Of a stretch of DNA of 64,000 nt, positions 28,168 through 49,655 are shown piece after piece. Where the stretch lies: positions 1 through 64,000 of the forward strand of contig CALWLJ010000004.1 in assembly GCA_944381495.1 (NCBI GenBank). The letters are read 5' to 3'. The notes beneath the pieces are model-generated. The model saw nothing but the letters and a program-made list of their open reading frames with translations, did not search any database and was not told the DNA's origin. The translations under genes were made by a program, and so were the position numbers. Position 1 is the stretch's first letter; the number at the start of each line of letters is the position of its first letter. The stretch comes from an uncultured Mediterraneibacter sp. (lineage in GTDB: Bacteria; Bacillota; Clostridia; Lachnospirales; Lachnospiraceae).

Positions 28168-29988
28168 TCAATCTTTAAAGCGATATCCGCATCTTCCGCA
28201 GAATTTTTCTCCTGGCTTATGCATATTACCGCATTTGGGGCAAAAAGTGGTATTGTATAGTATCTCCTGATTATGCTGCGTCTTTCGATTTTTTCCGTGT
28301 AGCCTTCTTTCAGGCTCTGAAATTTCTTTTTCTCCCTGTCTTTTCCTGTTACCCTTCTTCAGCCTATTCTTCACCTTCCAAGCTCCTAGTGTTATTAATG
28401 ACACGGAAAAACACACTGCAAAGATATAAAGTAAAAGTTTTTTATAGTGGAAGCATCTGAATGAAATTTGTTCTGAATACTTTCCTTCATCCGAACAGGT
28501 ATATTTAAGAATATTGCTGCCCTCTTCAAGCTCTGACGTCCCTGCGTTATACGGCAAAATATAGTTCAATTCTGTTTCACCTGAGTAAACATGAATATCA
28601 CTGTTTTCCAGTAAAAGCTGCTCCGCGACAGTACTTTCAAATATAGGAAGTGCTTTCCTGTCCACTTCGAAGTTGCAGCTTTTTACCCCAAGTATTCTTT
28701 CTGTATAATGCTCAACATCTTCCGGGAACCATGACTGAAAACTTACTTCATAATAACGATTTCCCTGGTCATCATATATCCGAAGACTGTCTCCGTCTTG
28801 TAGTCTGCTGCTTAAGTCTTCTTTAATCATCTCATGATATTCATCGGCAATTTCTCCGTTCATACAGAATAGAATCGAACGCTTTATTTTTTTCAACTCG
28901 TCTGACAAATCTGTCCAAATCTGTATAGAGTCAAACATCACTGCTTCATCATAATAAAAACGTACATTTCCATTTTTCTCATCACATGAAACAGTGTTTC
29001 CACTGACATTTACCAGGCCATTATCATATGTATCATCATCTTCTTCACTTATTTCCTGTACTGCCGCAAGATTCTCGTAATCGTCTGTCAGTTCCAAACG
29101 GTATCTAAATCCCCCTTCTTCTGTAAGCAGGGGCTCCACATCAATACTTTCTTCCGTTTCCATTCTTACTGTACTTTCATCTTTATAGTATTTTCTATGG
29201 CTGATATTCACCGATGTTCTTAACACTATCATAGTGTTTCTGACCAATTCCTCTTCAGTTGTTGCTGTGAAATTCACCGTACAGGATCCGGAATCACTTT
29301 CATATGTGGCTCCGCATGCTTTGCTCCGTTCTTCTACAGCAGACAATGCTGAGGCAGCCATTTCTTCTGTTGGACGTATCTCAATTGTTCTGGTCCAAGC
29401 TCCGTCCTGATCCAAAACCGTATTTATTTCAATATTGTCACATGAGAACACATCCTCTTCCGCTGTGTTAAACGCACCGGAATTACTAAACTCTTCTCCA
29501 TTTAATATAATCTTGTCCGAATGAACCTGTAAAAAGCCGGAAAAATCTTGCTCTTCCGTAAGTTCTTTCTGGTTCATCGCACGCCCGATAAATCCAAAAA
29601 GTTCAGAAGGAAGAAAGTTCTCAATATAATCTGTTTCTGTTACTGAATAAGTTGTAATCGGCTTCTCTCCCAACAAAACAGTCAGCTTTTCCTCATAATC
29701 AATATAAGAATCAAAAGAAAACCTGAGAATCAAATACAGATTTCTCCCCTGCGATTTCGTACTACATGTAAACCAGTCCTGCTGATTCTGACTGATCATC
29801 ATCTCCAAGGTTGTTCGGCCTCCGGATACAAAATTCTCCAGATCAGAATTCGAGATCCGACATATAGTAATCCTGTTTCCGGCGAACTCATCCATATTTC
29901 GAAAACTTTCCTGTGCTCCCACCGGTACGGCTGTAAATGCCAGCATTAATGCAAGAATTCCAAATATTCCAGCCCTTATTCTGCCCAT
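28168..29988 (-). CDS. Exported membrane protein with C-terminal zinc ribbon
   Basis: A 606-residue protein with reversed layout relative to most of its neighbours. A signal peptide (residues 1-25, ending PVGAQE) is followed by an extracellular part of about 490 residues that is beta-rich and acidic and not recognised. A membrane helix at about 517-537 (LLLYIFAVCFSVSLITLGAW), a very basic linker, and a cytoplasmic zinc ribbon CPKCG...CGRCG at the extreme C-terminus complete it. The ribbon thus still ends up inside the cell. RBS GAGGAATG. It is the last gene of the leftward operon, 10 bp after the previous one. Function unknown. Confidence 0.75.
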   Translation of the reverse strand: MGRIRAGIFGILALMLAFTAVPVGAQESFRNMDEFAGNRITICRISNSDLENFVSGGRTTLEMMISQNQQDWFTCSTKSQGRNLYLILRFSFDSYIDYEEKLTVLLGEKPITTYSVTETDYIENFLPSELFGFIGRAMNQKELTEEQDFSGFLQVHSDKIILNGEEFSNSGAFNTAEEDVFSCDNIEINTVLDQDGAWTRTIEIRPTEEMAASALSAVEERSKACGATYESDSGSCTVNFTATTEEELVRNTMIVLRTSVNISHRKYYKDESTVRMETEESIDVEPLLTEEGGFRYRLELTDDYENLAAVQEISEEDDDTYDNGLVNVSGNTVSCDEKNGNVRFYYDEAVMFDSIQIWTDLSDELKKIKRSILFCMNGEIADEYHEMIKEDLSSRLQDGDSLRIYDDQGNRYYEVSFQSWFPEDVEHYTERILGVKSCNFEVDRKALPIFESTVAEQLLLENSDIHVYSGETELNYILPYNAGTSELEEGSNILKYTCSDEGKYSEQISFRCFHYKKLLLYIFAVCFSVSLITLGAWKVKNRLKKGNRKRQGEKEISEPERRLHGKNRKTQHNQEILYNTTFCPKCGNMHKPGEKFCGRCGYRFKD

Positions 29989-29998
29989 ATTTCATTCC

Positions 29999-32656
29999 TC
30001 AATATAAATTATAACGATATAGTACCTCTGACTCTGACCAGGATGGCATTGTATAAAAGAAGATTCTGTTATCTACCATCTCCATATCGCATTCATCCAT
30101 ATTACATGGAATTTCGTCAAGACTTACAGTTGCAATTTTTGTCTTTGTTGTCATAGATTCGTCCATACGATATAGTTCCAATTCTGTCTCCGTCTGATCC
30201 ATGTAATACCAGTACCCAGCTTCGTCCTGTTCAAAGGTAAAAAAAGCTGTCCTGCTGCTAACTGATGTAATTACTCGTGAGCTTCCGTCCTCCGCCTGGT
30301 AAAGAACTACATTATACTTTCCATCCTCTCCATCCAGCTCTGTGAGGATCCCTTTTTCTGTTGGATTCCACCCGGAAATTCCTTCTGCCTCTACATAATT
30401 ACCTTCGTCTGCTGACAGCCAATATCCAGTCGCTGCAGTTTCCCTCAGATACCCATTAGAAATAAGTTCAAATGCGGCATAATAGTTCCCCATATCGTCC
30501 TTTATGCACTGTTGAGGAGTCAATTCGCCCTCATATGTTTCAAGAATACGGCCCTCATTTGACATCAGATAGTAGAAGCAATCCGGTCCTGTCAGCCAGG
30601 AAAACGCATTTTCTTCCTGGGTGAGAACAAGGTAATTTCCATCTTCTTCCACCATGATTTCCACACTCTCTTCGAACTCCGCAAGCTTTTCCTTCTCCAA
30701 CGAAAACCTGTCAATCGTATAAATCTGCGTATCAGTAAACGAAGGCACATAATAGAAATCATCATCATCCATGAGCAGTACATACTTTACATCTTCCAGA
30801 ATAATTTTGGTAACTGTACCATCCTTACTTATACGTCTTACGTTATATGACTCATCTTCAACTGGTTCCAGAACATAAATATACGATTGATCGAGTCCGC
30901 ATATTGAGAAAAAATCGCCTTCGTAAATCACATCACGGCTGAAGATTTCTTTGCTTTCCCGTAACAGCTTGCCATTTGTCCCCTTATAGTAGAAGTCATT
31001 CTCATCTTCTGCCGTCATCTTATTCCAGGTCATAGTATCTTCATTATAATGCGTCTCTCTCTTCTGTCCGGTTTCCCATAAAGTAATATCAAGAAGAGTT
31101 CCTTCCCATTCCAAAGCCGTGGAGGCATTTATACCCCATAATTTCACCTGCATTTTCAAGCAGGCCTTTAAATCTAATATTTTTGCATAAAGTCTTGCAT
31201 AATATGACGAATTTAGTCCGGCAGAAGACTCCTCTTTATCAGAAACCTCCAGAGTTATACCACCTTCAACTTCTCCTCCTATTTTTGCAATCCCCGCATC
31301 CACAAGATTAATATTAAAAAAATAAAGGAGCGCAGAAGTTCCTATATGTATATCAGCATCTGCATTAGCTTCTATCTTTACTTCATAGCTTATCTCTGGT
31401 TCTTTTGAGTCATCTTCAAACGAATGTACCAAATTGTTGTCTTTTACAAAAACAAACTTATTCTCGAACTCATCTGAATATTCAAAGTTTTCTGTCATTT
31501 TAAGAGATAAGTTTCCATACAAATCGATATACAGCATAAAGCCGCAAGACAATGGAACATATTCATGTCGCTTCTCGATATTTGAATTTAGGCTGTTTCC
31601 GATTCCAGATACATAGACGGGAGCCTGACAGCTGCAGTCAAAATACAGAATAGGAAATACTTTCTTCTTTAGCCCCTGCAGTTTTACAAAGCTGAGAATT
31701 TCTTCCTCTGTTGTTTTACCGGATACTTCTCCAGAAAGAGCCAACTCCGTTCCCACAGCAAATACTTGCTTCCCGCTTACTCCTGCTGATATTTCTCTTA
31801 TTCCATATTCTTTATCAAAATCTGCGGTAAAATTTAACTTCAAATCTTCCAGTCCGAGCTTGCCGGTAATTTTACAGGAATTGCTATAGCTGGCATCATA
31901 TGTCTTGCTATTTTTTTCTTCCTCTTCATCATCGTTTAATAATTCCAATAATTCAATTAAGTCAGCATCAATATCAACAATCAAGCTGCCGGCGTTCAAA
32001 CTAAGAGTGCTATCGTCATTTGTCTTTTCACAACTGACGTCTGCCATCATATTTTGTACTTCTGGAGTTCCGTTTTCTGATGCTTCTGTACTCTCAAAAA
32101 AATCTGCTGGTATAGTATCAACTGCTGTAACCGTTACTCCATCTACTGCACTGATATTTTCTATATTTTCAGTGTTTATCTGAAGTTCTTCATCCAAATA
32201 TAGCTGATCGAACACTTCATCTATCATTGGTGACTCAACAGATATAACTCTTTCTTCTCCCTGTACAGTATTTGACAGAACTTTTCCGATATAAGTTTCC
32301 TGCAGTGGAGTTGACTGATTTCCGTCCAGCCAGAAAATATCGCCTGTGCCAAGCTCCGTCAGTCCATTTTCTGTATTCTCCGCAAATTTGAGTATCAAAT
32401 CTGTTTCCCCAAATTCTACTGATGTAATTGTTTCATTTACAGCATCAGCATCTTCATCCATATACATATATACATTTTGATTCAGTATACCTTCATTTTC
32501 TTTTTCATCATCTCCGCTTTCTCCGGCTGATTCCCACCCGTCCTGTGTTTCATCAACAATTTCCGGCGAGGGTTGAAAAAAGAAGAAAAACCATGCTGCA
32601 CCAGCACTTAAAATCAACAGGAGAAGTAAAAAAATGATTAAAATTTTTCTTTTCAT
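29999..32656 (-). CDS. Large membrane-anchored extracellular protein, unknown function
   Basis: An 885-residue protein anchored by an N-terminal helix (residues 4-27: ILIIFLLLLLILSAGAAWFFFFF after KRK). The extracellular part begins with an acidic linker. Its middle is a beta-rich region (ISAGVSGKQVFAVGTELALSG), and from about residue 560 come repeated short strands such as NDFYYKGTNGKLLRESKEIF and DDFYYVPSFTDTQIYTIDRF that look like a beta-propeller. No zinc ribbon is visible, unlike its neighbours. The ATG at 32656 has AAAGGA in front; a GTG 27 bases upstream lacks a site. Function unknown; by position it belongs to the surface system. Confidence 0.72.
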   Translation of the reverse strand: MKRKILIIFLLLLLILSAGAAWFFFFFQPSPEIVDETQDGWESAGESGDDEKENEGILNQNVYMYMDEDADAVNETITSVEFGETDLILKFAENTENGLTELGTGDIFWLDGNQSTPLQETYIGKVLSNTVQGEERVISVESPMIDEVFDQLYLDEELQINTENIENISAVDGVTVTAVDTIPADFFESTEASENGTPEVQNMMADVSCEKTNDDSTLSLNAGSLIVDIDADLIELLELLNDDEEEEKNSKTYDASYSNSCKITGKLGLEDLKLNFTADFDKEYGIREISAGVSGKQVFAVGTELALSGEVSGKTTEEEILSFVKLQGLKKKVFPILYFDCSCQAPVYVSGIGNSLNSNIEKRHEYVPLSCGFMLYIDLYGNLSLKMTENFEYSDEFENKFVFVKDNNLVHSFEDDSKEPEISYEVKIEANADADIHIGTSALLYFFNINLVDAGIAKIGGEVEGGITLEVSDKEESSAGLNSSYYARLYAKILDLKACLKMQVKLWGINASTALEWEGTLLDITLWETGQKRETHYNEDTMTWNKMTAEDENDFYYKGTNGKLLRESKEIFSRDVIYEGDFFSICGLDQSYIYVLEPVEDESYNVRRISKDGTVTKIILEDVKYVLLMDDDDFYYVPSFTDTQIYTIDRFSLEKEKLAEFEESVEIMVEEDGNYLVLTQEENAFSWLTGPDCFYYLMSNEGRILETYEGELTPQQCIKDDMGNYYAAFELISNGYLRETAATGYWLSADEGNYVEAEGISGWNPTEKGILTELDGEDGKYNVVLYQAEDGSSRVITSVSSRTAFFTFEQDEAGYWYYMDQTETELELYRMDESMTTKTKIATVSLDEIPCNMDECDMEMVDNRIFFYTMPSWSESEVLYRYNLY

Positions 32657-32712
32657 TCTTCTTTTTCCTTTGTTATCTTCCACTTATCAAATAGCAATAG
32701 TCTGTTTATATG

Positions 32713-33342
32713 TTAGTTTTTATAAAATTCTACAGCTTCCTGATCCTCAAATGAATAAGTTCCTGTTGAATCCGACGCCTCAATTGGTGTTAATTTAAGA
32801 ACCATATAGTCTCCAAATCCCCACTCGTATGCATACAGCAAATCTTTTACAGGTTCTTCTATTTCATATTTATAAACCTCTTCGATTTTGTCGCCCCACT
32901 GATCCGTATAATTCAAAATAATTCTTTTACTTGATTCATGCCACTCATATGTTGCTGCTTTTACTTCACCATCTTCTACAATCTCGGCATCTCCACTAGT
33001 ATCATCACTCGGAGCATAAAAAGTAACTCCGTCCCCTTCACCATTGATCCAGGCTCCTTCTAATTTTCCCAAATCCGATTTTTCTGTCCCCAATATACGT
33101 ACAACCGCAAAAACAATTATTCCAACAATCAATACTGCTGCCAAAAAACTAAAAGCTTTCTTTTTCCCCTTATTTTTCCTTTGCTTTTTCTCTTCATAAC
33201 TATCGAACACTGATGAGGGATTCACATAAGTGTCTGTTCTCAGCCCGCTTTTTTCTGATAATTTATATTCAACAACTGTTCCACAATAAGGACAATATTT
33301 TACATCTTCATCAAGTTTTTCCCCACAGTTTGAGCAATACAT
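32713..33342 (-). CDS. Zinc-ribbon membrane protein, 209 residues
   Basis: The N-terminal zinc ribbon CSNCG...CPYCG (residues 3-22) is followed by a charged linker, a membrane helix (FSFLAAVLIVGIIVFAVVRIL, about residues 65-85) and an extracellular domain of about 120 residues rich in Trp, Tyr and acidic residues (LEGAWINGEGDGVTFY, KRIILNYTDQWG). The outside domain resembles small lipocalin-like or DUF5640-type barrels that start with a GxW motif. RBS GGAAGGAGG. It is a typical member of the locus: ribbon inside, one helix, one domain outside. Confidence 0.78.
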   Translation of the reverse strand: MYCSNCGEKLDEDVKYCPYCGTVVEYKLSEKSGLRTDTYVNPSSVFDSYEEKKQRKNKGKKKAFSFLAAVLIVGIIVFAVVRILGTEKSDLGKLEGAWINGEGDGVTFYAPSDDTSGDAEIVEDGEVKAATYEWHESSKRIILNYTDQWGDKIEEVYKYEIEEPVKDLLYAYEWGFGDYMVLKLTPIEASDSTGTYSFEDQEAVEFYKN

Positions 33343-33362: not shown

Positions 33363-34139
33363 CTACTTCAACTTAAAACCACATATTCCACAAAAGGCTG
33401 CTCCTTCATCCACAATACTTCCGCATTGAGGACATCTTAAAATATTATCCGGCATCATATCCAGATCTGCTATCTCTGTCATGATATCGTCTTCCGATAA
33501 TTCTCCCTCCGTAGATATCTCGTTATTCGGTTCTGATTTCCATTCAGGTTCTCCCACGATTTCAGGTGTAATATCTCGTTCAGCATCATATGGTTTTATC
33601 ATTTTGGAACGCGATTCTAATATTGCAGCTTTTTTTACTTTTCCTTCTTCCCTCACTATATAAGTGATTCCCCATATACTTCCTGCTATGATTAATACAT
33701 AAATGGTGCACCATACATATAACGGTAAAATTTTGATATTAATATTGTCAAAAAGCAATAATAATATTGCGTTATCTTTTATAACAGCATAAACATCCGT
33801 ATATAATCTCCATGCTAAAACCGCGACTTCACCGTTAATTATAACTGCGCCTGACAAAGCAATTATATATGAACTTTTCCAGCCGGATACAAACATAGAC
33901 ACCATACATATAAGTATTGTAACAAAAATGATCAGTACAATTACAAGAGGCCCTGCAAGGAACTCCTGTATAGGCTCCAAAACATACTTTGATGCTGAAG
34001 TATCGCTTCCCGCTACCACCGCTCGGAACAAATCCATCAGACATATATCAGTCTTCTGGACTTCCATGAAAGGAATTAAGGTCACAAGCAATGAAGAACA
34101 AAACAGTAATCCTATCAGATATTTTAATATTTTTCTCAT
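33363..34139 (-). CDS. Polytopic membrane protein with C-terminal zinc ribbon
   Basis: A 258-residue protein with four hydrophobic segments (around residues 7-25, 64-85, 90-110 and 140-160) and a cytoplasmic tail of about 90 residues ending in a zinc ribbon CPQCG...CGICG. The tail is acidic before the ribbon. The first segment may act as an uncleaved signal. Only a weak ribosome site (ATAGGAAA) precedes the ATG. No family is recognised; it could be a membrane platform for the single-pass ribbon proteins encoded beside it, but this is speculation. Confidence 0.72.
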   Translation of the reverse strand: MRKILKYLIGLLFCSSLLVTLIPFMEVQKTDICLMDLFRAVVAGSDTSASKYVLEPIQEFLAGPLVIVLIIFVTILICMVSMFVSGWKSSYIIALSGAVIINGEVAVLAWRLYTDVYAVIKDNAILLLLFDNINIKILPLYVWCTIYVLIIAGSIWGITYIVREEGKVKKAAILESRSKMIKPYDAERDITPEIVGEPEWKSEPNNEISTEGELSEDDIMTEIADLDMMPDNILRCPQCGSIVDEGAAFCGICGFKLK

Positions 34140-34185: not shown

Positions 34186-34503
34186 TCAAAGAGGGTTTCC
34201 ACATTTAATACAGAAGATTTCTCCCGGTCTTGTCTCTCTTCCACAACAAGAACATATATTTTGAGATTTCGGTTTCATTTTTACCGCCCCTTCTGCCCCC
34301 ATCTTGCCCAGCCTGGTCCCGCAATTTGTACAAAACAAAACGTCATCGCTCATTTCCATTCCACAGGACGGGCATACTCTCTGTTTAGGAGAAGATGTTG
34401 TTGTTTGATCTGCAATCTGTTCTAACTTCATCCCACAGTTTGTACAAAATCTGGTTCCTTTCTGTACAGCCATCCCACAGGAGGGAGATGTAATACCATC
34501 CAT
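34186..34503 (-). CDS. Soluble triple zinc-ribbon protein
   Basis: A 105-residue protein consisting almost only of three short zinc ribbons and no membrane helix. Ribbon 2 (CPSCG...CTNCG) and ribbon 3 (CSCCG...CIKCG) are complete. Ribbon 1 reads SPSCG...CTNCG, so its first cysteine is replaced by serine. The start at 34503 has GGAGAGGG upstream; an earlier in-frame start would add a stretch unlike the family. As a cytosolic protein made of the same module that sits on the membrane partners, it might be an adaptor between them. Confidence 0.72.
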   Translation of the reverse strand: MDGITSPSCGMAVQKGTRFCTNCGMKLEQIADQTTTSSPKQRVCPSCGMEMSDDVLFCTNCGTRLGKMGAEGAVKMKPKSQNICSCCGRETRPGEIFCIKCGNPL

Positions 34504-34580
34504 AGATCCCTCTCCTAATCTCTTATATCCCAATATTCTGGATTCAATACTGATCTTACGAGTTAAGATAGCAAAATCAA

Positions 34581-35414
34581 TCAATAAAATTCCATTTCTG
34601 ATATAGCAGTATCTTCATATTTGCTACCAGGATAAACTGAATTAATAGTAACTGTTATCGAGTCCGTTTCAAGAGGCGTTAACAATTGTATCTTTTGTAC
34701 ATCCATAACATCCTGCAAAACAATCTCTTCTGACGTACCATCGGACGCAGTAACTGTAATTTTTTCCGGGCGGGAATTTTTATAATACAGATCACTGCTT
34801 TTTTGATACCCTGCACTAATACTGATTCCATTAACACTGTAATCTCCGTCAAACAAGAATACGATTGTTTCTCCAATTCCCTGTCCATCCGCGCCTTCCA
34901 CCCATGCCGTTGATAAATCTCCATCGGTTATACGCTCGGGAGCATGTGTCATATTGTATTCTGACAATGACGATGATGCATATATGCTTCGGATATGGTT
35001 CATATCTATGCTTTCCGGAACATTAACATTTTCTGCTGTCTCATCTGCATTTTCTCCTTCGCCAGAGATTTCTGTTTCAAATTCTTCCGTCGGCGTATTA
35101 TCTGTTACCGTCTCTGAATTTTCTTCGGGATCATTCGTACTAATTTCCTCTATATCTTCTTTCAGCGAATCTATTTCATCATTTATTAATATATCTTCAT
35201 CAAAATATTTTTCCTGTTTTTTACTGCTTCTATTGTCAAGAAAATAAATACCTACTGCTGCAAGTAACGCCGCTGCTGCCAATATAGTAATAATTACAAA
35301 CACTAATAAAAATTTTGATTTTTTACGCGGAGCGTCCTTTTTAACAGACGCTCCGCAGTATTTACAAAATTTTGTATTCTCAGAAATTTCTTCCCCGCAT
35401 ACTATGCATTTCAT
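34581..35414 (-). CDS. Zinc-ribbon membrane protein with NADase-type glycan-binding domain
   Basis: A 277-residue protein. Zinc ribbon CIVCG...CKYCG (3-21), basic linker, membrane helix (FLLVFVIITILAAAALLAAVGIYF, about 34-57 with a short break), a Glu/Asp/Thr-rich stalk, and from about residue 145 an extracellular discoidin-like domain. The latter shows IYASSSLSEYNMTHAPERI, DGDLSTAWVEG, GIGETIVFLF, ISAGYQKS and YPGSKYEDTAISEM, the layout of the NADase-type glycan-binding domain. It should bind carbohydrate outside the cell. RBS AGAGGAAAAG. Confidence 0.85.
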   Translation of the reverse strand: MKCIVCGEEISENTKFCKYCGASVKKDAPRKKSKFLLVFVIITILAAAALLAAVGIYFLDNRSSKKQEKYFDEDILINDEIDSLKEDIEEISTNDPEENSETVTDNTPTEEFETEISGEGENADETAENVNVPESIDMNHIRSIYASSSLSEYNMTHAPERITDGDLSTAWVEGADGQGIGETIVFLFDGDYSVNGISISAGYQKSSDLYYKNSRPEKITVTASDGTSEEIVLQDVMDVQKIQLLTPLETDSITVTINSVYPGSKYEDTAISEMEFY

Positions 35415-35449: not shown

Positions 35450-36358
35450 CTATTCTGAAAAGAATTTATCAATCCCGTTTGCTATTCCAGTAACAATTTT
35501 ATTCTGGTAATCCTCTGTTGCAAGCAATCGATCCTCTTCCGGGTTAGTCATATATCCCATTTCAACAATTGTAACAGGTACCTGGCACCAGTTAATTCCA
35601 CTCATAGTATCTGTTTCCCAGACATATTCCTTATTACATCCGGCAGAAGCAGTCAGTTCATCAAGTACATATGTTGACAGTTCCTTGCTCTGCTGATAGA
35701 ATTCGGAATTATACGGATTATCCGGCGTCTGACATATTGTCATGGCTCCATTCACAGAGCTGTTTTCAGAACCATTCGCATGAATTCTGATAAAAGCATC
35801 CGCATTTGCATCATTTGCCACAGCAGCTCTTTCGGAATTGCTGATATCTACATCATTTGTAGTTCTTACCATGATCACCTGATACCCTCTGTTTTCTAAT
35901 TCTTGCTGAAGCTTTAGCGAAACCATCAAAGTCAGTTCATATTCATCTAATCCGCTGACACATCCTGATGTGCCGCTGGATACTTTTGCTTTCATTTCAC
36001 TAGATCCAGGTCCTACAGGCTCTTTCTCATAGTTTCCTTTTGCCTGATGTCCTGCATCGATAACAACCAGATATCCTCCACCATTGGTATTGCTATTTAT
36101 ATTCTCGTCTAATTCTTGATCCGATGGTTCATTCATCTTCTCCGTGTCTTCTTTCTCTTCTGATATTTCATTCTCTTTCTGTGTTTCTGATAGCTGTTGT
36201 GTATTTTCCTCTGGCTGTGGTGCAGGAATCACAATTTCACGGATTTCAGATTCTCCATCAGAGCTTTTATCATCAGCTTCCCTTTTTTCTCCACATCCAA
36301 ATAGTGTGCATACAACAATCACCAAAAGGAAAATATATAATTTGTGATATTTCTTCAT
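35450..36358 (-). CDS. N-acetylmuramoyl-L-alanine amidase (Amidase_3) lipoprotein
   Basis: A 302-residue cell-wall hydrolase that cleaves the bond between MurNAc and the stem peptide. Lipobox TLFGC near residue 22, acidic Gln/Glu linker, then the zinc amidase core from about residue 97: VVIDAGHQ (first His), [15 protein letters not shown] (Glu), [16 protein letters not shown] (second His) and [14 protein letters not shown] (catalytic Glu). The ATG shares its A with the TAA of the YARHG gene, so the two are coupled. Within the locus it may open peptidoglycan for the large surface proteins, or remodel the wall in response to the kinase. Confidence 0.9.
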
Positions 36359-37619: not shown

Positions 37620-38255
37620 TTATGCTATATAGAGTATCCGCCATTCGTTGTCTTCTTTTGACATCGTAATAGACACTGTACGATTGATTTTTTTCCCATC
37701 CTGCTCTACTGTCACGGAAACTTCCGCGATTGAAATCTGCTCGATCATACTGATATCAAAATCAGGATATGCCGATTCTATCGTATCAAAGAATTCATCC
37801 TGTCTTCTCTCGGACAGATCATAAATCTCATCAATTGCGTAGGAAAATTTATAATTATGTCCCACTGACTCTTCAAAACTATCCAGGCCATAGCCGACTG
37901 CGGACTCAAAATATGTCTCTGCAGCATCATCATATCCATAATAATACATGTCGCTGGAAAGTGAGATCAAAGTCTCAATATCATAATCTCTGTAGGCATT
38001 CATAACTTTCCGTACAAATCCCTTTCTTCCAGTGAAGTTAGAAATAACATTCACCGCAACAATAACGATTATCAAAATAAGTACGACTATGCCGATAAGC
38101 TTAAAGCGCTTTTTACTTTTTTCTCTCTTCTTTGGATCAACATACTTAAATTCTTGTGTCCGACCGGAGTATCCTGCGACAGGTGTCCCACACTGTCCGC
38201 ATACTCTTGCATCATCATCTAACGGTGCTCCACAATTTCCACAATATTTAGCCAT
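37620..38255 (-). CDS. Zinc-ribbon membrane protein, 211 residues
   Basis: Ribbon CGNCG...CGQCG (5-22), a basic linker with KKREKSKKRFK, a membrane helix (LIGIVVLILIIVIVAVNVI, about 52-72) and an extracellular domain of about 135 residues: helical start (RKVMNAYRDYDIETLISLSSDMYYYGY) and three or four strands at the end (VSVTVEQDGKKINRTVSITM). This layout resembles NTF2-like or DUF4878-type ligand domains. RBS AGAGAGGTAGAG. It starts one base after the stop of the large metalloprotease gene, so it is co-translated with it. Confidence 0.77.
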   Translation of the reverse strand: MAKYCGNCGAPLDDDARVCGQCGTPVAGYSGRTQEFKYVDPKKREKSKKRFKLIGIVVLILIIVIVAVNVISNFTGRKGFVRKVMNAYRDYDIETLISLSSDMYYYGYDDAAETYFESAVGYGLDSFEESVGHNYKFSYAIDEIYDLSERRQDEFFDTIESAYPDFDISMIEQISIAEVSVTVEQDGKKINRTVSITMSKEDNEWRILYIA

Positions 38256-42081: not shown

Positions 42082-42116
42082 AATCCCCCTCCTCGCTATG
42101 CGACACAAAAGCAAAA

Positions 42117-42149: not shown

Positions 42150-42155
42150 CCTCGA

Positions 42156-42588: not shown

Positions 42589-43005
42589 TTAATTATATTC
42601 CTGCACTTCTTCGTAGCAATCATCACATACAAATACTATCATTCCCAAAAGATTTTCATAATGTCTGCTTGACTTATCACCACAGAGCGCACATTCTGAA
42701 CTGCAATCTTTACAAACATATGACGTAGAACCATCGCTTGTTTCATATGCAATTGACGGTCTGTCTCCACACCAGTCACATGGTTCATCAGCAATCGGAT
42801 TTCTAAAAAAGAAAAATGCCGCTGCAACTGCAATAACAGCTATACAGCCAATCGCGATTACTTTCTTTGAATTGGAAGAATTTCTCTTGATATGCTCAGT
42901 CTTTATCTTTCCTTCTTCACTGTTGCCAGAACTTACAGGCGCACCGCAATGTGGACAAAACTTACCTCCATCCAACTTTGCGCCACAATTACCACAATAC
43001 TCCAT
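42589..43005 (-). CDS. Zinc-ribbon membrane protein with a second, extracellular CxxC cluster
   Basis: A 138-residue protein. Cytoplasmic ribbon CGNCG...CPHCG (4-20), membrane helix (VIAIGCIAVIAVAAAFFFF, about 48-67), and a short outside part with four CxxC pairs: CDWCG, CKDC, CALCG and CDDC. The outside cluster looks like two more ribbons or treble clefs and could bind metal or form disulfides, which would be unusual outside an anaerobe. RBS GGGGGATAAAG. Function unknown. Confidence 0.74.
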   Translation of the reverse strand: MEYCGNCGAKLDGGKFCPHCGAPVSSGNSEEGKIKTEHIKRNSSNSKKVIAIGCIAVIAVAAAFFFFRNPIADEPCDWCGDRPSIAYETSDGSTSYVCKDCSSECALCGDKSSRHYENLLGMIVFVCDDCYEEVQEYN

Positions 43006-43825: not shown

Positions 43826-43921
43826 TCATCCTGACCAACGCATCAATCTCACCACATTCTTCTTACTGCCACAATACAAGATCTCATCTTCTATCTCTTT
43901 CCCGCAATTTGTACAAAACAT
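43826..43921 (-). pseudogene. Short degenerate zinc-ribbon gene
   Basis: An ATG at 43921 with GGAGGGAAAG in front opens a 31-codon frame: MFCTNCGKEIEDEILYCGSK and then a run-out. The second CxxC pair is missing in this frame, but a one-frame shift after YCGSKK restores CGE and stays open to 43770. It therefore looks like a ribbon gene damaged by an indel, and promoter A now lies within its former 3' part. A short functional peptide cannot be excluded. Confidence 0.55.
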
Positions 43922-43957
43922 CTTTCCCTCCTGCATTAGGATTTTACCTTTCCTTTT

Positions 43958-44107
43958 TTATCTCTTCTGACTTTCACCATATTCTTTATCAAGCTGTCTG
44001 TTCAACTTAGCAGATTTGACTTTATAAGTAATAAAAAATATCAAAGCTAAAATCAAAGCAATTACAGCCATGGCCATTCCACCGTAAAACAGCACTTCAT
44101 TCAACAT
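43958..44107 (-). CDS. 49-residue single-pass membrane protein
   Basis: A small gene easily missed. The ATG at 44107 follows AGGTGAG about 9 bases away and lies 17 bp after the subtilisin gene. The product starts MLNEVLFYGGMAMAV, has one long hydrophobic helix (residues 5-29) and a charged cytoplasmic tail (KVKSAKLNRQLDKEYGESQKR). Such size and layout fit an accessory subunit or regulatory peptide of a membrane complex. No homologue is recognised from sequence alone. Confidence 0.65.
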   Translation of the reverse strand: MLNEVLFYGGMAMAVIALILALIFFITYKVKSAKLNRQLDKEYGESQKR

Positions 44108-44124: not shown

Positions 44125-46917
44125 CTATTCATATCCCACAAAACCTTCTTCACCGCCCGCATTATAAATACCATAATAAGGAAGTGTCTCTTCTTCATCT
44201 GGATTGAAAAAGGCCTGTAACCAGACTTTAAATCCTTCAGGCAATTCATCAACAGGTGTTCCTGGTACATAAATAAGGAATTCATCTGCATTATCAAAGC
44301 CATACGGGTCAGCATAAATAAATCTCTGGTCATCTTCATAATATACATCTCCAGAAACCCCTTCGATTTGAAGGCTATCTAATCTCATAGAATATGTATA
44401 ATCATTCACTTGTTCCGGCTCAGTAAATTTTCCCGAAAAATTACATATATATACTGTACCGCCTTCATATCCGCTTCCAGAATCCCCTAACTCGCTGTCA
44501 TAATAGTAACCCTTAAAACTGCCATCACTTTCAAATGTCAATTCTGTGCTCCATGCTCCAGCTCCACTTGAAAATATAAAAACAGACGGCATTGAATCAA
44601 ATATTGATTCCTTATTGGCAATATCCTCTGTTTTCTTCCAAAAAATAGTGTATTCATATACCTCTGTCTGCAGCATTATCGAATCACCATTTTCTACAAT
44701 CAAAATATCCCTTGTTTCATTTATATTTTCTTCGTAAGTAAGAATGTCATAAGTCAACTGACCATTATTCATATTCCAAGTACCTTCTCCACCTATTCCT
44801 GCTCCAATGTAATACGAAAAGGTTCCGTCCGCGTTGATTGTCATCCCACTTCCATATTGTGTATAAGCAGATCCAAATATTTGTTTCATTGATTGGCCAT
44901 TTTCTTCCATGGTCCTTTCATCATCTATCTGCCATATTCCTTCAGCTGCTCTTGCATCATATCCTTCCTGATTCAAATAGATTTTATCGCTTAAATAATT
45001 TACGCTGCCCTTTTCAACCGTTATTTGTACAGCGTATTTCGTATTCTCTCCCGGCCATGTATAGGCTTCATATCCTTCCGCCTGTACCGCCAGTGTATAT
45101 TCACCTTCTGGTAATATTAATTCGAAATGTCCTCTTGTATCCGTTGAAACACTTTCTGTTTCACCGGTAGCTGTATTTACTGCCGAAACTACAGCATTTT
45201 CAACGCCTACATTTTCATCATCTGCATTTACTACCCAGCCAAGAATCCCTGCCTGTTCCTCCAATTGTACATCGCTGTCAATTTCAATTTCAGCAGCAGC
45301 TTTTACTGACCGAGCTGCATCAACAAACTTGCATTCCGTACATCTTTCGTTCTCATAGCGGCAGACAAGCTCCTTGACTTCTTTGCCTGAAAGAGACTGA
45401 TTAATCGACCATACCATTGCAGCTACCCCGGATACATGCGGTGACGCCATAGACGTTCCGCTCCAGTTTCTTGTATCGCCATTTTCATCTACGAATGAAT
45501 TTTCATAGCCATTATCAGGAACTGTTGAAAATATAATTTCCCCCGGAGCGTATATATCCACCCGGTCTCCGCCATTTGAGAAATTGCTTACTTCAAATTC
45601 TGAATCTACAGCACCGACAACTATAATCCTGTCATAAACATCTGGATATTCTTCTTCATCAATTACTGTGGTCCACCAATTATATTTGCTGTCATATATA
45701 ATATTGTTATATCTGTCAGAGTCGTTTCCCGCAGAATTTACAAGCACATAATCGTAACCTTTTTCTAACAACCGCTCAAGAAAATCTGCAAGAATATAAG
45801 AATTGGATTCCAAAAAACTGACCTGTTCTTCCCATTTCGAACCCGTGTATCTTATCCCGTTTGCTTTATAGTGGAATCCCAGACTGCTGTTTATTACTTT
45901 TACATTTCTCAAAATGAGTTCCGCATAAGCAATCTTCAGAAATACAGATGATGTCCGGAGAGAACCATTCTCAGGATAACTGCAGCCGCCTTTGTATGAT
46001 ACTCCATATAGATTATCTGCTCCATATGGATATACTCCGCATATTCCTTCTTGATTATCTGAGCGTGCCGCCATTGTTCCGGCCACATGCGTTCCATGCT
46101 CCTGATCACTGGTTTCATCGGATAAATTATAAAAAACCTCTGCAAATCCCAAATCTTCATGATTTTGATCGAATCCTCCGTCGATCAGTCCAACTCGGAC
46201 CGGATGAACTCTAGACTGATTTTCTTTCAAAATATCCCATGCATTAAAGGTTTCAATTGCCTCAATTCCCCAGCTTGTTCCTTCTGCATCAATGAAATCC
46301 TCCAGATCTTCCTTCCATTCCTCACCATATATAAATGCATCATTTTCCTCTGACTGTGTCTCTTCCACCTGATCAGATGTATTAAAAAAGTAATTCAGAT
46401 ACGCATCTGCGATTTTATCTTCATCTCTTAACCTGACAATAACGTCATTCAATTCTTCTCTTGTATATGCCCGATCCAACCTAAATTGGTAATCTCCTGT
46501 CTGTTCAATCCAGCCGACAATATCAGCTCCAAACGATTTTGCTATCTTTTCTATATCGTCATATTTCACTGATTGCTCTGCAACAATAAGAATTTCATTA
46601 TCTGCGTACATAATGCCATCTGAATCCGTAGCGATATGCTCTTCTTCTGTCTGATAAAAATACACTTTTCCAATATTATCTGCATCGTACGCTGTATCTT
46701 CATTCTGATTACTTTTTCCCCAAAATCCATCTTTCCAAAGTATCAGAAACATTACTGAAATGATGCAGCAGATGAATAACAAAAGCAAAATCCACTTCCA
46801 TTTTTTCGGTCTCTTTTTCTTATTTTTCAATTTTTTCGATGTTTTTTTCGAAGCATCTGAAATCTTATTCCCACAGTACGGGCAAAATAAAGCACTGTCA
46901 TCTATTTTTTTCCCCAC
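44125..46917 (-). CDS. Zinc-ribbon-anchored subtilisin-like protease, frameshift at the N-terminus
   Basis: A 930-codon frame opening at a GTG. Half of a zinc ribbon remains (KKIDDSALFCPYCGNKI), then a basic linker, membrane helix (about 42-63), a propeptide-like domain, and an S8 protease with Asp in GLIDGGFDQNHEDL (about 243), His in EHGTHVAGT (about 273) and Ser in GTSMASPHVSG (about 488). A carboxypeptidase-regulatory-like domain (VNTATGETESVSTDTRGHFEL) and a C-terminal beta domain follow. A better start is the ATG at 46933, which encodes MICQYCG and would complete the ribbon, but it is out of frame by one base across the run GGGGAAAAAAA (minus strand). So the N-terminus is frameshifted, or switchable. 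Confidence 0.85.
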   Translation of the reverse strand: MGKKIDDSALFCPYCGNKISDASKKTSKKLKNKKKRPKKWKWILLLLFICCIISVMFLILWKDGFWGKSNQNEDTAYDADNIGKVYFYQTEEEHIATDSDGIMYADNEILIVAEQSVKYDDIEKIAKSFGADIVGWIEQTGDYQFRLDRAYTREELNDVIVRLRDEDKIADAYLNYFFNTSDQVEETQSEENDAFIYGEEWKEDLEDFIDAEGTSWGIEAIETFNAWDILKENQSRVHPVRVGLIDGGFDQNHEDLGFAEVFYNLSDETSDQEHGTHVAGTMAARSDNQEGICGVYPYGADNLYGVSYKGGCSYPENGSLRTSSVFLKIAYAELILRNVKVINSSLGFHYKANGIRYTGSKWEEQVSFLESNSYILADFLERLLEKGYDYVLVNSAGNDSDRYNNIIYDSKYNWWTTVIDEEEYPDVYDRIIVVGAVDSEFEVSNFSNGGDRVDIYAPGEIIFSTVPDNGYENSFVDENGDTRNWSGTSMASPHVSGVAAMVWSINQSLSGKEVKELVCRYENERCTECKFVDAARSVKAAAEIEIDSDVQLEEQAGILGWVVNADDENVGVENAVVSAVNTATGETESVSTDTRGHFELILPEGEYTLAVQAEGYEAYTWPGENTKYAVQITVEKGSVNYLSDKIYLNQEGYDARAAEGIWQIDDERTMEENGQSMKQIFGSAYTQYGSGMTINADGTFSYYIGAGIGGEGTWNMNNGQLTYDILTYEENINETRDILIVENGDSIMLQTEVYEYTIFWKKTEDIANKESIFDSMPSVFIFSSGAGAWSTELTFESDGSFKGYYYDSELGDSGSGYEGGTVYICNFSGKFTEPEQVNDYTYSMRLDSLQIEGVSGDVYYEDDQRFIYADPYGFDNADEFLIYVPGTPVDELPEGFKVWLQAFFNPDEEETLPYYGIYNAGGEEGFVGYE

Positions 46918-46983
46918 AATATTGACAAATCATAATGATTCCTATTTTTCCTTTCCATATACAAAACCTGTACACTGATTGAC

Positions 46984-48459
46984 TTAACTATCTACCGCTA
47001 CACCTTCTCTTAAACTCATATTGAAATAATATTGAGGTTCTATTTTCTCGCCATCCGCATCATAATCATAGAAATATATCCAGTCTGTTCCCGGTATTAA
47101 AGCCGCATCTGTCCATTCACATTCAACTTCATTGTAGCCACATTCTGTATTCGCTAAACCTGTCTTCCCATTTGCATTACGGATAAAAACATATTCATCA
47201 TTTCCAAAGTCTACAATATCCATATTATTAATTAAAATTTCTCCATCAGACCTAACCACAATTTCATCATAAAATTGTTCCTGTACAATAAGTGTCCATT
47301 CCTTTGCTGCCATATTAGTTATATTCCAAAATCCATAATCACCAATGGTCCATCCGTCATCTAGTTCAAATACTATTTTTCCGGCTTTGTCAATAATAAC
47401 CTCGGATTCTTCAGTTGAAGCCAGTGTACAGTCTGAATTCCAAAAGCCCAGACCGCCTACAAACTGTGGAGGAATTACTATATTTCCATCCGCATCAGCA
47501 TATCCAACTTTACCATTTTCATCGATTGGGAAAAGATCCGATGTCATTTGTCTTGTATCCTCCATTAGTACTTTAGACATAACAAAAACATTTGGAGTTT
47601 TGCACCGTTTTCCCGTTTCATCAAAGCAACTTCCTATTTTATATTGATTCGATGAATTCTGTTCATTTTCCAGCATCCCTGCAAAGTAGACGTGATTATC
47701 AATTTCATAAGGATAAATAGCATCATAAACACATGGAACAACAACTTTTTCATTTCCCTTTCCAACACCAATCTTATCGCCTTTATGTAAACAGAAAAAC
47801 GGATTATCTTCTGTAGCAAGGAGCTCAATATTGTCATACTGTTTATACAAACGAACATCTCCTTGATAAAGATAGACCTGTTTATCTCCATCTTTTTCAT
47901 TCGTACATATATATAATATATAATCTCCTGCTTTGCTTACTCTAATGGATTCCCACTCTATCGGCTCAATAACACTTCCTTTTCTATCTACCATGCCCAT
48001 GTATTCATCTTTGGTAACCACATAGATTCCCTCTGAATATTGCTCTGCATCATCAAATTCACCAATTGTCTTCTTTTCTTCGCCTAATACATTAATAAGA
48101 ATCCATACTCCACCTCTATTAGCAAGAGCTTCTTTTCCTTTAAAGGCCGTAACATTATCATATATCGCATCAATTTTCACTTTTCCTGTTTTGCTGCTTA
48201 TATACCCCCACCTTCCATTTTCTGTATATGGTAGGAGCGATGTAAGTGTCATTTTTATCTCTCTATACACAACCATAATCATTACCAAACATATTCCTAT
48301 TGTCAAAAGAGAACAGCACATCTTAAAAAATAAACAGCTTTTCCATACCTTTTCTTGAGGTTCAAAATTTTCTTGCATTTCCTTTTCAAGAGGTACTCCA
48401 CACTTTGGGCAAAATTTCTCTTGTCCTGCTAATCTTTGTCCGCAGTTGCTACAAAACAT
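46984..48459 (-). CDS. Zinc-ribbon membrane protein with WG repeats
   Basis: A 491-residue protein. Ribbon CSNCG...CPKCG (3-20), membrane helix (about 45-66, LLTIGICLVMIMVVY), and an extracellular part with WG (KWG-type) repeats: ENGRWGYISSKTGKVKI, YMGMVDRKGSVIEPIEWESI, ENGKVGYADADGNIVIPPQF and degenerate copies. WG repeats are widespread in bacterial surface proteins and likely bind proteins or polymer. The ATG at 48459 has GGAAGG upstream; a GTG just before it is too close. It follows the Lgt-like gene by about 50 bp. Confidence 0.83.
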   Translation of the reverse strand: MFCSNCGQRLAGQEKFCPKCGVPLEKEMQENFEPQEKVWKSCLFFKMCCSLLTIGICLVMIMVVYREIKMTLTSLLPYTENGRWGYISSKTGKVKIDAIYDNVTAFKGKEALANRGGVWILINVLGEEKKTIGEFDDAEQYSEGIYVVTKDEYMGMVDRKGSVIEPIEWESIRVSKAGDYILYICTNEKDGDKQVYLYQGDVRLYKQYDNIELLATEDNPFFCLHKGDKIGVGKGNEKVVVPCVYDAIYPYEIDNHVYFAGMLENEQNSSNQYKIGSCFDETGKRCKTPNVFVMSKVLMEDTRQMTSDLFPIDENGKVGYADADGNIVIPPQFVGGLGFWNSDCTLASTEESEVIIDKAGKIVFELDDGWTIGDYGFWNITNMAAKEWTLIVQEQFYDEIVVRSDGEILINNMDIVDFGNDEYVFIRNANGKTGLANTECGYNEVECEWTDAALIPGTDWIYFYDYDADGEKIEPQYYFNMSLREGVAVDS

Positions 48460-48510
48460 CACTTCACCTTCCTCACTTCCTGTTTCTCTGATATATTTTC
48501 TAATAGTACT

Positions 48511-49326
48511 TTATTTATTCTCGGGAGTCCCAGCCGAAGCGGGTTGCATAGTCTTTTTATGAACTTTTAATCGAATTTGTCTACATTGACAAATAACTAC
48601 TCCTAGTACAAGGAAAATACTAACCCACTGTGAAACTGATAATCCGTCAATAATTTTTCTTTCAAAGTCATCATATCGTAAAAACTCTAAGATAAACCGG
48701 ATTACAGCATAAGTTACCAAATATATTTCCACACTCTTTATATGTTTTTTATCATGTACATATATATAGAGAAACAGAATTAGTGACAGACATATTTCTA
48801 GAAATGCCTCTACTCCCTGTACTGGGAAGAGCGAAACTCCAATTGGTGCTATATGAGAATTGTTATATACAATAGCGCCTGGTCCATCATAAGGAATCCC
48901 ATAACAACATCCCGTTAACAGGCAGCCAATACGGCCAAATGCATGTACGAGAGGAATTAATGGAACTTCAATCTTCATATAAGTCATCACATCAAACTTG
49001 AACATTCTGCTGCAAACCAGAGCCCCTAAAAGACCTCCCAACAAACCACCGTAAAATATATATCCTCCACTCATTAAGCGCGTAAAATAATCCGGCTCAG
49101 TTACTCTTGAGAAATCAATCTGAGGGAAAGATACAATAAGATATAAAAGTTTTGCCCCCACCATCGCTCCGATTCCCACACACCCTGCCAATGTTATAAA
49201 ATCGTTGATATCTAAATAATACACTTTTGCTTGTATATAGCCTGCAATTCCGCCTGCCAAAATGCCAAGAACAATAAATAGTCCATAATACGGAATCATT
49301 AAACTTCCTATCTGCATTCCGATCAT
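48511..49326 (-). CDS. lgt: Lgt-like prolipoprotein diacylglyceryl transferase
   Basis: A 271-residue membrane enzyme with seven hydrophobic segments that adds diacylglycerol to the lipobox cysteine of prolipoproteins. The key loop reads HAFGRIGCLLTGCCYGIP, the form seen in divergent Firmicutes Lgt proteins in place of GRxGNFxN. Also seen: GGYIFYGGLLGG (the YGG region), the Pro/Gln-containing segment LFPVQGVEAFLE and FILEFLRYDD. AAAGGA lies ten bases before the ATG at 49326. A standard housekeeping lgt is usually elsewhere, so this may be a second, locus-specific copy. The lipoproteins at 20277 and 35450 are possible substrates. Confidence 0.82.
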   Translation of the reverse strand: MIGMQIGSLMIPYYGLFIVLGILAGGIAGYIQAKVYYLDINDFITLAGCVGIGAMVGAKLLYLIVSFPQIDFSRVTEPDYFTRLMSGGYIFYGGLLGGLLGALVCSRMFKFDVMTYMKIEVPLIPLVHAFGRIGCLLTGCCYGIPYDGPGAIVYNNSHIAPIGVSLFPVQGVEAFLEICLSLILFLYIYVHDKKHIKSVEIYLVTYAVIRFILEFLRYDDFERKIIDGLSVSQWVSIFLVLGVVICQCRQIRLKVHKKTMQPASAGTPENK

Positions 49327-49367
49327 CACCTATATTTCCTTTTCCATACTTTTTAAAAAGTCAATAA

Positions 49368-49392: not shown

Positions 49393-49403
49393 TAAATCCA
49401 CTT

Positions 49404-49655
49404 CTATGATAATAATGCCATTCCCCCTACGCAAGCAACACACGCCGCATACATCAGCAAACACAAAATTGTCCCAATAATCGAGCAGATAAAACCCGCT
49501 GAGGCAATTCCCTTTTCTTCCGGTCTTTTTTTCCCCTGAGACCCCATAATAATTCCGATAATCCCCAGAATAGCTCCAAGCCATCCGAGTCCACCTCCAC
49601 TGAAAAGGCCAATAACAATTGAAATAATTCCTAATACAAGTGATGCTATTCCCAT
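49404..49655 (-). CDS. Small DUF4190-like membrane protein, 83 residues
   Basis: Two hydrophobic hairpin regions (GIASLVLGIISIVIGLFSGG plus GWLGAILGIIGIIMG, and GFICSIIGTILCLLMYAACV) around a charged loop with KRPEEKG. The pattern of Gly-rich helices repeats like DUF4190/DUF4870-type small membrane proteins. The ATG at 49655 follows GGAGGG; an ATG 12 bases upstream overlaps that site. It is the first gene behind promoter D, although that promoter is about 370 bp away. Confidence 0.7.
   Translation of the reverse strand: MGIASLVLGIISIVIGLFSGGGLGWLGAILGIIGIIMGSQGKKRPEEKGIASAGFICSIIGTILCLLMYAACVACVGGMALLS

What the first reader, a model, noticed from the sequence alone, without database searches (positions are those of the whole stretch)
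28168..49655. A gene cluster of zinc-ribbon-tethered surface proteins
In about 21 kb, some dozen genes encode proteins that share one module, a short CxxC...CxxC zinc ribbon, joined by a single membrane helix to quite different extracellular domains: M4 protease + C-type lectin + VWA, subtilisin, WG repeats, YARHG, NADase-type glycan-binding and several unknown ones. In two proteins the ribbon is at the C-terminus, but topology still puts it inside the cell. Two further proteins are soluble and consist mainly of three ribbons. The repeated use of one inner-face module suggests a common docking or assembly device: ribbons of the membrane proteins could meet on soluble ribbon proteins or on a membrane platform. 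I know of no named system with this design.
Basis: partly seen in the sequence, partly recalled or inferred. Interest (0 to 1): 0.88.

Follow-up and report, generated by a model that had tools for sequence, protein, structure and literature searches.

The report
Gene cluster of ribbon-tagged surface proteins
A gut bacterium carries a run of genes whose very different surface proteins keep the same tiny zinc-binding tag on the inside of the cell, next to protein-kinase signalling genes; similar runs exist in some related bacteria, which suggests a shared inner docking point that has not been tested in the laboratory.

Summary
Twelve genes on one strand (28168-48462) carry a zinc ribbon: 15 ribbons with all four Cys, against 0.04 per shuffle; 17 of the genome's 21 ribbon matches lie in 28168-49655. 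Ten are membrane proteins with unlike outer domains, two are soluble. BLAST finds likeness only in the ribbon stretch, so this is no recent tandem duplication. Beside the run lie a Hanks kinase, PP2C, DUF6382-FHA and a TadZ-like gene.

Comparable clusters occur in other Lachnospiraceae with changed parts. In 24 genomes not chosen by ribbon number, 13 of 105 ribbon genes have another within 3 kb (expected 1.1), and 8 of 60 lower-scoring kinases lie within 5 kb of a ribbon gene (expected 1.0) against 0 of 22 PrkC-type. But 92 of 105 ribbon genes have no such neighbour, and 3 of 13 genus members have a dense cluster.

Best reading: the ribbon is a cytoplasmic docking tag in a kinase-linked membrane system (0.4). 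Main rival: a passive anchor (0.3). No contact was shown. Ribbon-helix-ectodomain proteins are known singly (YARHG proteins, TcaA); my paper searches showed no account of the cluster.

The parts
28168..29988 (-). 606 aa protein, N-terminal signal-like helix, C-terminal helix and C-terminal zinc ribbon
29999..32683 (-). 894 aa single-helix protein without ribbon, weak DUF5050 match (below cut-off)
32713..33342 (-). ribbon + helix + small outer domain
33363..34139 (-). about four-helix membrane protein with C-terminal ribbon; homologues in other loci carry another C-terminal domain instead
34186..34584 (-). soluble protein of three ribbons (first one lacks a Cys)
34581..35414 (-). ribbon + helix + NADase_transloc F5/8 type C domain
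   Evidence: PF25302, 5.3e-34
35450..36358 (-). N-acetylmuramoyl-L-alanine amidase, lipoprotein-like start (judged by eye), no ribbon
   Evidence: CwlD match 4.5e-24, below the equivalog cut-off
36358..37545 (-). two ribbons + helix + YARHG
37620..38255 (-). ribbon + helix + small domain; partial TcaA-like match, far below cut-off
38257..42114 (-). ribbon (four Cys; no PF13240 match) + helix + FTP/M4 protease + C-type lectin + VWA + C-terminal helix
42156..42632 (-). multi-helix membrane protein; in L022 its relative (59%) follows a relative (50%) of 42589
42589..43005 (-). ribbon + helix + CxxC-rich outer segment
43041..43643 (-). soluble helical hairpin followed by three ribbons (candidate adaptor)
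43826..43936 (-). short ORF with a degenerate ribbon (remnant)
43958..44107 (-). about 49 aa single-helix ORF
44125..46917 (-). subtilase membrane protein; ribbon split between two reading frames at its start
46984..48462 (-). ribbon + helix + WG repeat
48511..49329 (-). prolipoprotein diacylglyceryl transferase (Lgt), of the lower-scoring type of the genus
26543..27706 (-). TadZ-like receiver domain + weak AAA ATPase match
25557..26531 (-). DUF6382 + FHA protein
24729..25544 (-). PP2C phosphatase
21883..24762 (-). Hanks-type kinase + helix + propeller-like outer part (weak matches)
27754..28071 (+). HTH regulator, 78% identical to one beside TadZ and kinase in L004

Best explanation
The zinc ribbon is a standard cytoplasmic docking tag. 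Each membrane protein displays its own enzyme or binding domain outside and the same small ribbon inside. Inside, the ribbons are gathered by ribbon-bearing partners (the three-ribbon proteins, the four-helix protein, perhaps the TadZ/FHA module), so that a changing set of surface proteins is held or assembled as one membrane patch. The neighbouring kinase, PP2C and FHA proteins would set when this happens. Shown by sequence: the repeated ribbon, unlike outer domains, recurrence near kinases, different end domains on relatives of the four-helix protein, one domain fusion. Predicted: inner placement. Inferred: binding between ribbons and any partner, phosphorylation control, and the patch itself.
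For: 1) Fifteen complete ribbons in a one-strand run, on N- or C-terminus, with no BLAST similarity between the proteins outside the ribbon stretch.
2) Soluble multi-ribbon proteins in the same run; the hairpin protein models as a long hairpin with three ribbons on weakly predicted linkers (pLDDT 78.9). A mere anchor would not need these.
3) Ribbon genes cluster: 13 of 105 within 3 kb of another, mean 1.1 and at most 8 in 2000 simulations, in 24 genomes not chosen by ribbon number; 79 of 199, expected 4.8, in 19 genus or ribbon-rich genomes.
4) Lower-scoring kinases lie near ribbon genes: 8 of 60 within 5 kb (expected 0.97, P 5e-6, same-frame fusions left out) against 0 of 22 top-scoring ones, which I take as PrkC-type by score alone. 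L017:3227 is a kinase with an N-terminal Zn_Ribbon_1; L016:8867 and two L008 kinases have the cysteine pattern at the start, though Pfam lists no ribbon for L016:8867.
5) The window's four-helix protein ends in a ribbon; its relatives in L018, L026, L028 and L029 end in a conserved beta domain that Foldseek likens weakly to FHA. Two other four-helix proteins in L015, homology not shown, end in two and three ribbons.
6) In L029 one protein holds several N-terminal helices, a ribbon (22.4 bits, cut-off 25), helix and M4-lectin-VWA; the L028 counterpart has a subtilase and VWA and no ribbon.
7) Relatives of the window's F5/8C, YARHG and amidase genes are neighbours again in a different genus (L018), YARHG before amidase in both, F5/8C on the other side, near kinase, FHA and FHA-ABC genes.
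8) Precedent: the ribbon of archaeal ArnA binds ArnB by itself, in a system run by a Hanks kinase and an FHA domain (PMC12852372 passages).
Against: No contact was modelled or measured. Most ribbon genes have no ribbon neighbour (92 of 105 at 3 kb), and 52 of the 60 kinases lie away from ribbons at 5 kb. At 10 kb the PrkC-type control is not clean in the selected set: 3 of 17, expected 0.8, P 0.04; it is 0 of 22. The hairpin family has another ribbon within 3 kb in 6 of 35 listed places, and in the three genus loci read a single-ribbon relative sits beside lspA or a likely lspA. Ten of 13 genus genomes lack a dense cluster. The end domain of the four-helix protein is not confirmed as FHA by Pfam, hhalign or a PDB sequence search and its model is poor (pLDDT 53.8). 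Ribbons of one genome are only slightly more alike than ribbons of different genomes (0.332 v 0.303, 0 of 300 shuffles, first ribbon of 49 single-helix proteins; for all 109 ribbons 0.278 v 0.270, 18 of 300), and common descent could explain that.
Confidence: 0.4

Rival explanations
1. Passive anchor: a small, fast-folding zinc ribbon plus basic linker keeps the N-terminus inside and fixes type II insertion; the cluster is simply an island of surface proteins.
For: Ten membrane genes of the run carry it; the ribbon side of the helix is more positive in 29 of 38; little is conserved in the ribbon beyond Cys, Gly and an aromatic; 92 of 105 ribbon genes have no ribbon neighbour.
Against: Two window ribbons sit C-terminal to the last helix, where no insertion help is needed; soluble ribbon proteins lie in the run; some kinases carry ribbons; clustering with kinases exceeds chance.
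Confidence: 0.3
2. Membrane-tethered regulators: the ribbon binds nucleic acid after a signal from outside, as Coggill and Bateman proposed for ribbon-YARHG proteins.
For: Published proposal for ribbon-YARHG proteins, 73 cases with ribbon pairs (PMC3355149 passages); that paper states that zinc ribbons often bind nucleic acid.
Against: Mostly one short ribbon per protein; a dozen co-located proteins, two of them proteases with large outer parts, each as its own regulator is unlikely (judgement); ribbons also at C-termini and on kinases.
Confidence: 0.12
3. Metal or redox sensing: the ribbons report zinc or oxidation to the kinase/phosphatase module, as suggested for the TerY-P triad.
For: TerY-P (VWA, PP2C, kinase fused to a zinc ribbon) is hypothesised to be a metal-sensing switch (PMC11090510 passage); L060 has ribbon genes with VWA, PP2C-like genes and kinases.
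Against: No ribbon match in the window kinase; no metal-transport or metal-regulator family among the window proteins scanned.
Confidence: 0.08

Closest known systems
Ribbon-helix-YARHG proteins (Coggill and Bateman 2012, PMC3355149; passages seen)
   Same: N-terminal zinc-ribbon pair, helix, extracellular YARHG; 73 cases reported; window 36358-37545 is one
   Different: The passages treat single proteins; no cluster or adaptors there; proposed to be membrane-tethered transcription factors
TcaA of Staphylococcus aureus (PMC10328498; passages seen)
   Same: Zinc finger predicted inside, single helix, most of the protein outside; linked to wall teichoic acids; partial HMM matches of 37620, 36358 and 32713
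   Different: Scores far below the TcaA cut-off (at best 27.8 of 550 bits)
ArnA-ArnB of Sulfolobus (PMC12852372, PMC6509490; passages seen)
   Same: A single zinc ribbon is a protein-docking module in a Hanks-kinase/FHA/VWA system
   Different: Archaeal; ribbon and FHA are in one protein; controls motility; no membrane helix mentioned in the passages
TerY-P triad (PMC11090510; passage seen)
   Same: Kinase, PP2C, VWA and zinc ribbon together; L060 is similar
   Different: In the window the VWA is in the outer part of a membrane protein and no ribbon was found in the kinase
Kinase/phosphatase/FHA modules of Tad loci and of type VII secretion variants (PMC11217815; passages seen)
   Same: DUF6382-FHA is a component of T7SSe (with kinase and phosphatase) and T7SSf (phosphatase, no kinase found); Tad-like loci L001-L002 (with PP2C) and L003-L004 (no PP2C seen) carry TadZ, DUF6382-FHA and kinase
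   Different: No Tad or T7SS structural genes were recognised beside them in the window
One-helix zinc-ribbon protein paired with a Skillet-2 Lipocone (PMC12419801; passage seen)
   Same: Cytoplasmic zinc ribbon on a single-helix protein in a two-gene system
   Different: No outer enzyme set or kinase cluster in the passage

Membership tests
Zn_Ribbon_1 (PF13240) ribbons | Match over curated cut-off | tested here: met
   8 of 12 window ribbon proteins; 42589 (24.7), 44125 (21.0), 46984 (22.6) below 25 bits; 38257 no PF13240 match. In the six-frame search, 42589, 44125 and 46984 pass and 43868 does not
Ribbon-helix-YARHG proteins | Ribbon pair, helix, C-terminal YARHG | tested here: met
   36358-37545: two ribbons, helix at 88, YARHG 4.7e-22
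TcaA | NF053815 equivalog cut-off (550 bits) | tested here: not met
   27.8 bits at best among the ten proteins scanned
TcaA | Ribbon inside, one helix, most of the protein outside | tested here: met
   Six single-helix window proteins; topology by hydropathy and charge only, charge reversed in 46984
TerY-P triad | Kinase fused to zinc ribbon, PP2C, VWA protein | tested here: not met
   No CxxC in the window kinase; VWA lies after a helix in 38257
ArnA | Ribbon and FHA in one protein | tested here: not met
   FHA protein 25557 has no CxxC
Type VII secretion e/f | EssC-type ATPase and WXG100 protein | tested here: not met
   None in Pfam scans of 20 genes at 20277-49329; 35450 was scanned with NCBIfam only; the HTH gene, the short ORFs and the rest of the window were read as ORFs, apart from 50515
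Tad pilus locus | TadA/B/C and pilin next to TadZ | tested here: not met
   TadZ and FHA genes are adjacent in the window; in L003/L004 genes of Tad-like layout, not family-scanned, lie between them
FHA domain on the four-helix protein of relatives | FHA fold | tested here: inconclusive
   Foldseek FHA hits E 0.02-0.12 on a pLDDT 53.8 model, after a TARP hit at 0.005; Pfam, hhalign and PDB sequence search negative
Docking module | Physical contact ribbon-partner | not testable with these tools
   No complex modelling available

The most novel reading that the evidence does not exclude
A plug-in surface system: the ribbon is an address tag that lets any outer domain join a kinase-gated membrane platform made of hairpin-ribbon adaptors, a four-helix protein and a TadZ-like positioning ATPase. 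Lineages swap outer domains and swap the platform's end domain (ribbon or beta domain) while keeping the tag.
Probability: 0.2. Interest if true: 0.85.

Novelty: new variant of a known kind. Interest (0 to 1): 0.6.

Why it matters
Very many proteins in gut Firmicutes are probably named only 'zinc ribbon domain-containing protein' (my estimate; ribbons occur in 96 of 100 family genomes). If the inner ribbon is a docking tag, their outer domains (proteases, lectins, amidase neighbours) become parts of one controllable surface assembly, and the candidate partners are named here: the hairpin-ribbon protein, the four-helix protein, and the kinase/PP2C/FHA/TadZ set. That is directly testable by pull-down. 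It would also give one meaning to a layout so far explained as a transcription factor or left open.

Tried and rejected
Recent tandem duplication as the cause of the cluster: rejected by all-against-all BLAST of the 16 genes with helices and ribbons masked (the mask missed ribbons at the very start); the six pairs found lie in ribbon stretches within the first 60 residues. Distant likeness is not excluded. Chance: rejected. A dedicated scaffold role of the hairpin family: weakened. Of the rows listed (a cut listing) I chose 35 that cover the hairpin; 29 of these reach into a ribbon; 6 have another ribbon match within 3 kb (7 if a match 21 bases beyond one gene's end is counted). FHA on the four-helix protein: not settled. 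RNA families: one match, a T-box. Promoter scan: 64 found, 71.6 in shuffles; one 11-of-12 match lies in the 481-base gap upstream of 43643. Paper searches for a described system (listings of an open-access library, two of them empty) and passages of seven opened papers gave no account of a cluster; no paper was read whole.

Limits of the counts: the 19 genomes are 13 of the genus and 6 chosen for many ribbons; one search used G001-G025 in listing order without G013, which was among those 6 and has the most ribbons (25). Chance levels assume uniform placement and ignore contig ends. In one search matches within 400 bases were merged and kinase-ribbon fusions were counted; matches were merged by open frame and fusions left out. 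'PrkC-type' means E of 1e-54 or better; no PASTA domain was checked. Gene starts in the loci come from a simple script, and names such as EssC, WXG100 or Tad in them from size, layout or first residues unless a Pfam call is cited. Topology rests on a hydropathy window.
Full report
What is there. The window is contig 4 (1-64000) of a 3.19 Mb genome. A named member of the same genus group is Mediterraneibacter massiliensis (L028; its contig length and coordinates are those of G100). From 28168 to 49329 sixteen larger genes lie on the - strand; from 28168 to 43643 the gaps are at most 74 bases, then comes a gap of 481 with two short ORFs, then three more genes. Twelve carry zinc ribbons. Outer domains are M4 protease with C-type lectin and VWA, subtilase, WG, YARHG, an F5/8C-type domain and several without a name. 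An amidase, a DUF5050-like protein, a multi-helix protein and an Lgt lie in the same run without ribbons.

Is it more than chance. Complete four-Cys ribbons number 15, against 0.04 per shuffle; 17 of 21 PF13240 matches of the genome lie in 28168-49655. BLAST likeness between the proteins is limited to ribbon stretches. So one module sits on unlike proteins.

Setting. GC is 0.35-0.44 from 12 to 50 kb, against 0.44-0.49 outside (2 kb steps), and a partial tyrosine integrase lies at 50515-51078 (Phage_int_SAM_3, 5.6e-11), so the block looks like an acquired island (inference). Upstream genes are TadZ-like, DUF6382-FHA, PP2C and kinase. The closest relatives of four of the genes there in the loci fetched are in L003/L004, where HTH (78%), TadZ (41%), kinase (55% over 962 aa) and DUF6382-FHA (43% over 167 aa) lie around what reads as a Tad locus; in the window the TadZ and FHA genes are adjacent. 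A PP2C relative (36%) lies in the similar locus L001/L002. The other DUF6382 gene of this genome is in a Tad-like locus on contig 8 (L009; layout only). DUF6382-FHA is also a component of T7SSe, which has kinase and phosphatase, and of T7SSf, which has a phosphatase but no kinase found; 'zinc' does not occur in that paper's main text (PMC11217815 passages). The window kinase is the only Pkinase match in its genome at E 1e-8, but the assembly is 91% complete.

Elsewhere. Of 13 genus genomes (own included) G000, G100 and G102 have dense clusters; the other ten have 3-7 ribbon matches each, with 2-3 close neighbours in G101, G109 and G110 and none in seven. In the family 96 of 100 genomes have ribbons. 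Loci with two or more ribbon genes read here: G102 (L013/L014/L029), G100 (L010/L028), L026 (Mediterraneibacter), L025 (Blautia), L021 and L022 (uncultured Lachnospiraceae), G085 (L018, L019), G079 (L015), G094 (L005), G022 (L061), G026 (L020, L060), and loci that look like type VII secretion: G013 (L016/L017), G012 (L008), G003 (L059) (judged from size and layout). No ribbon neighbour was seen in the hairpin-family loci L023 (3.2 kb), L024, L027 (6.9 kb) and L037. Of the 32 loci, 16 were annotated and 16 were not. L018 has relatives of the window's F5/8C, YARHG and amidase genes side by side: YARHG is before amidase in both, but F5/8C stands before YARHG in L018 and after amidase in the window; a kinase, an FHA protein and an FHA-ABC transporter are near. 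L060 has ribbon proteins with two kinases, two PP2C-like genes (one by BLAST, one below the Pfam cut-off), a VWA without helix and an FHA-ABC ATPase.

Counts. In 24 family genomes taken without regard to ribbon number, 13 of 105 ribbon genes have another within 3 kb (mean 1.1, maximum 8 in 2000 simulations), and 8 of 60 lower-scoring kinases lie within 5 kb of a ribbon gene in another frame (expected 0.97, P 5e-6), against 0 of 22 PrkC-type; at 10 kb it is 10 of 60 (expected 1.8) and 0 of 22. In 19 genus or ribbon-rich genomes the figures are 79 of 199 (expected 4.8), and 17 of 52 (expected 1.6) against 0 of 17 at 5 kb; at 10 kb the control is 3 of 17 (expected 0.8, P 0.04). The other side of the same numbers is that 92 of 105 ribbon genes have no ribbon neighbour and 52 of 60 such kinases lie away from ribbons.

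The four-helix protein. Window 33363-34139 is related by BLAST to L018:12741, L026:7898 and L029:4530 (25-27%, E 4e-5 to 8e-12). Those, and L028:7152, end in a conserved beta domain of about 100 residues (A6); the window protein ends in a ribbon. Two four-helix proteins of L015, homology not shown, end in two and three ribbons. The beta domain resembles FHA domains in Foldseek (E 0.02-0.12), but the model is poor and three sequence methods found nothing; I see no canonical phosphothreonine residues in A6 (motif recalled). In L029 several N-terminal helices, a sub-threshold ribbon, helix and M4-lectin-VWA form one protein; its L028 counterpart has subtilase and VWA without ribbon.

The hairpin-ribbon protein (43041). 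Ten sequences, the window's included, align (A5). The model shows helices 8-63 and 69-97 and three ribbon hairpins with weak linkers (pLDDT 78.9); Foldseek gave no match at E 0.001 or better, and among weak ones zinc fingers bound to partners (Nup153-Ran 0.27, ArnAB 0.56). In 43 genomes 35 listed matches cover the hairpin, 29 of them with a ribbon, 6 near other ribbons. In the three genus loci read (L053-L055) a single-ribbon relative neighbours a gene that is lspA in L053 by Pfam and by likeness in the other two. Of 17 lgt loci in the genus 4 lie within 3 kb of a ribbon gene (expected 0.2, P 4e-5; a short G107 fragment was left out); two of the four are neighbouring copies in G103 and one is the window's own, so this is thin. 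A link with lipoprotein maturation is a lead only.

Mechanism. I commit to docking of ribbons on inner partners, with kinase-linked control, at 0.4. The strongest points are ribbons at either end of membrane proteins, ribbons on soluble proteins and some kinases, and the different end domains of the four-helix family. The precedent is ArnA, whose ribbon alone holds ArnB in the unphosphorylated state (PMC12852372 passages). The passive-anchor reading (0.3) is simpler and fits the many solitary genes. Nothing here measures contact.

Known or new. Ribbon-helix-YARHG proteins were described in 2012 with the ribbon inside (PMC3355149 passages); TcaA has the same layout (PMC10328498 passages). TerY-P joins kinase, PP2C, VWA and ribbon (PMC11090510 passages). 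In the eight paper searches made for such a system I saw no account of a cluster of ribbon-tagged surface proteins with ribbon adaptors. I rate it a new variant of a known kind.

Noticed in passing
window 12001-50000 and 50515-51078: Low-GC block with a partial tyrosine integrase at its edge; the ribbon cluster, kinase module and Lgt lie inside it.
   Followed up: partly
L053:7475-8701, L054:7837-9090, L055:7041-8054: A single-ribbon hairpin protein sits beside lspA (Pfam in L053, likeness in the others) in three genus members; 4 of 17 lgt loci, in three genomes, lie within 3 kb of a ribbon gene.
   Followed up: partly
window 48511-49329: The Lgt is of the lower-scoring type of the genus and is the only LGT match found in this 91% complete assembly.
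   Followed up: partly
L060:3627-10086: Two kinases, two PP2C-like genes, a VWA without helix and an FHA-ABC ATPase near ribbon genes, rather like a TerY-P set.
   Followed up: partly
L059:2-13125 and L016/L017: Ribbon proteins and kinases inside loci that look like type VII secretion by layout; L059 holds a hairpin-ribbon protein.
   Followed up: no
window 46860-46990: The subtilisin's ribbon is split between two frames at a run of A: assembly error, decay or a switch cannot be told apart.
   Followed up: no
window 16041-20166: Two large surface proteins with leucine-rich-repeat look (by eye, not family-scanned) and C-terminal helix next to the kinase module.
   Followed up: no
window 53921-54239: T-box leader before leuS.
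   Followed up: no
L028:7152-8174: The model's top Foldseek hit is a TARP subunit, over the four-helix part, on a poor model.
   Followed up: no
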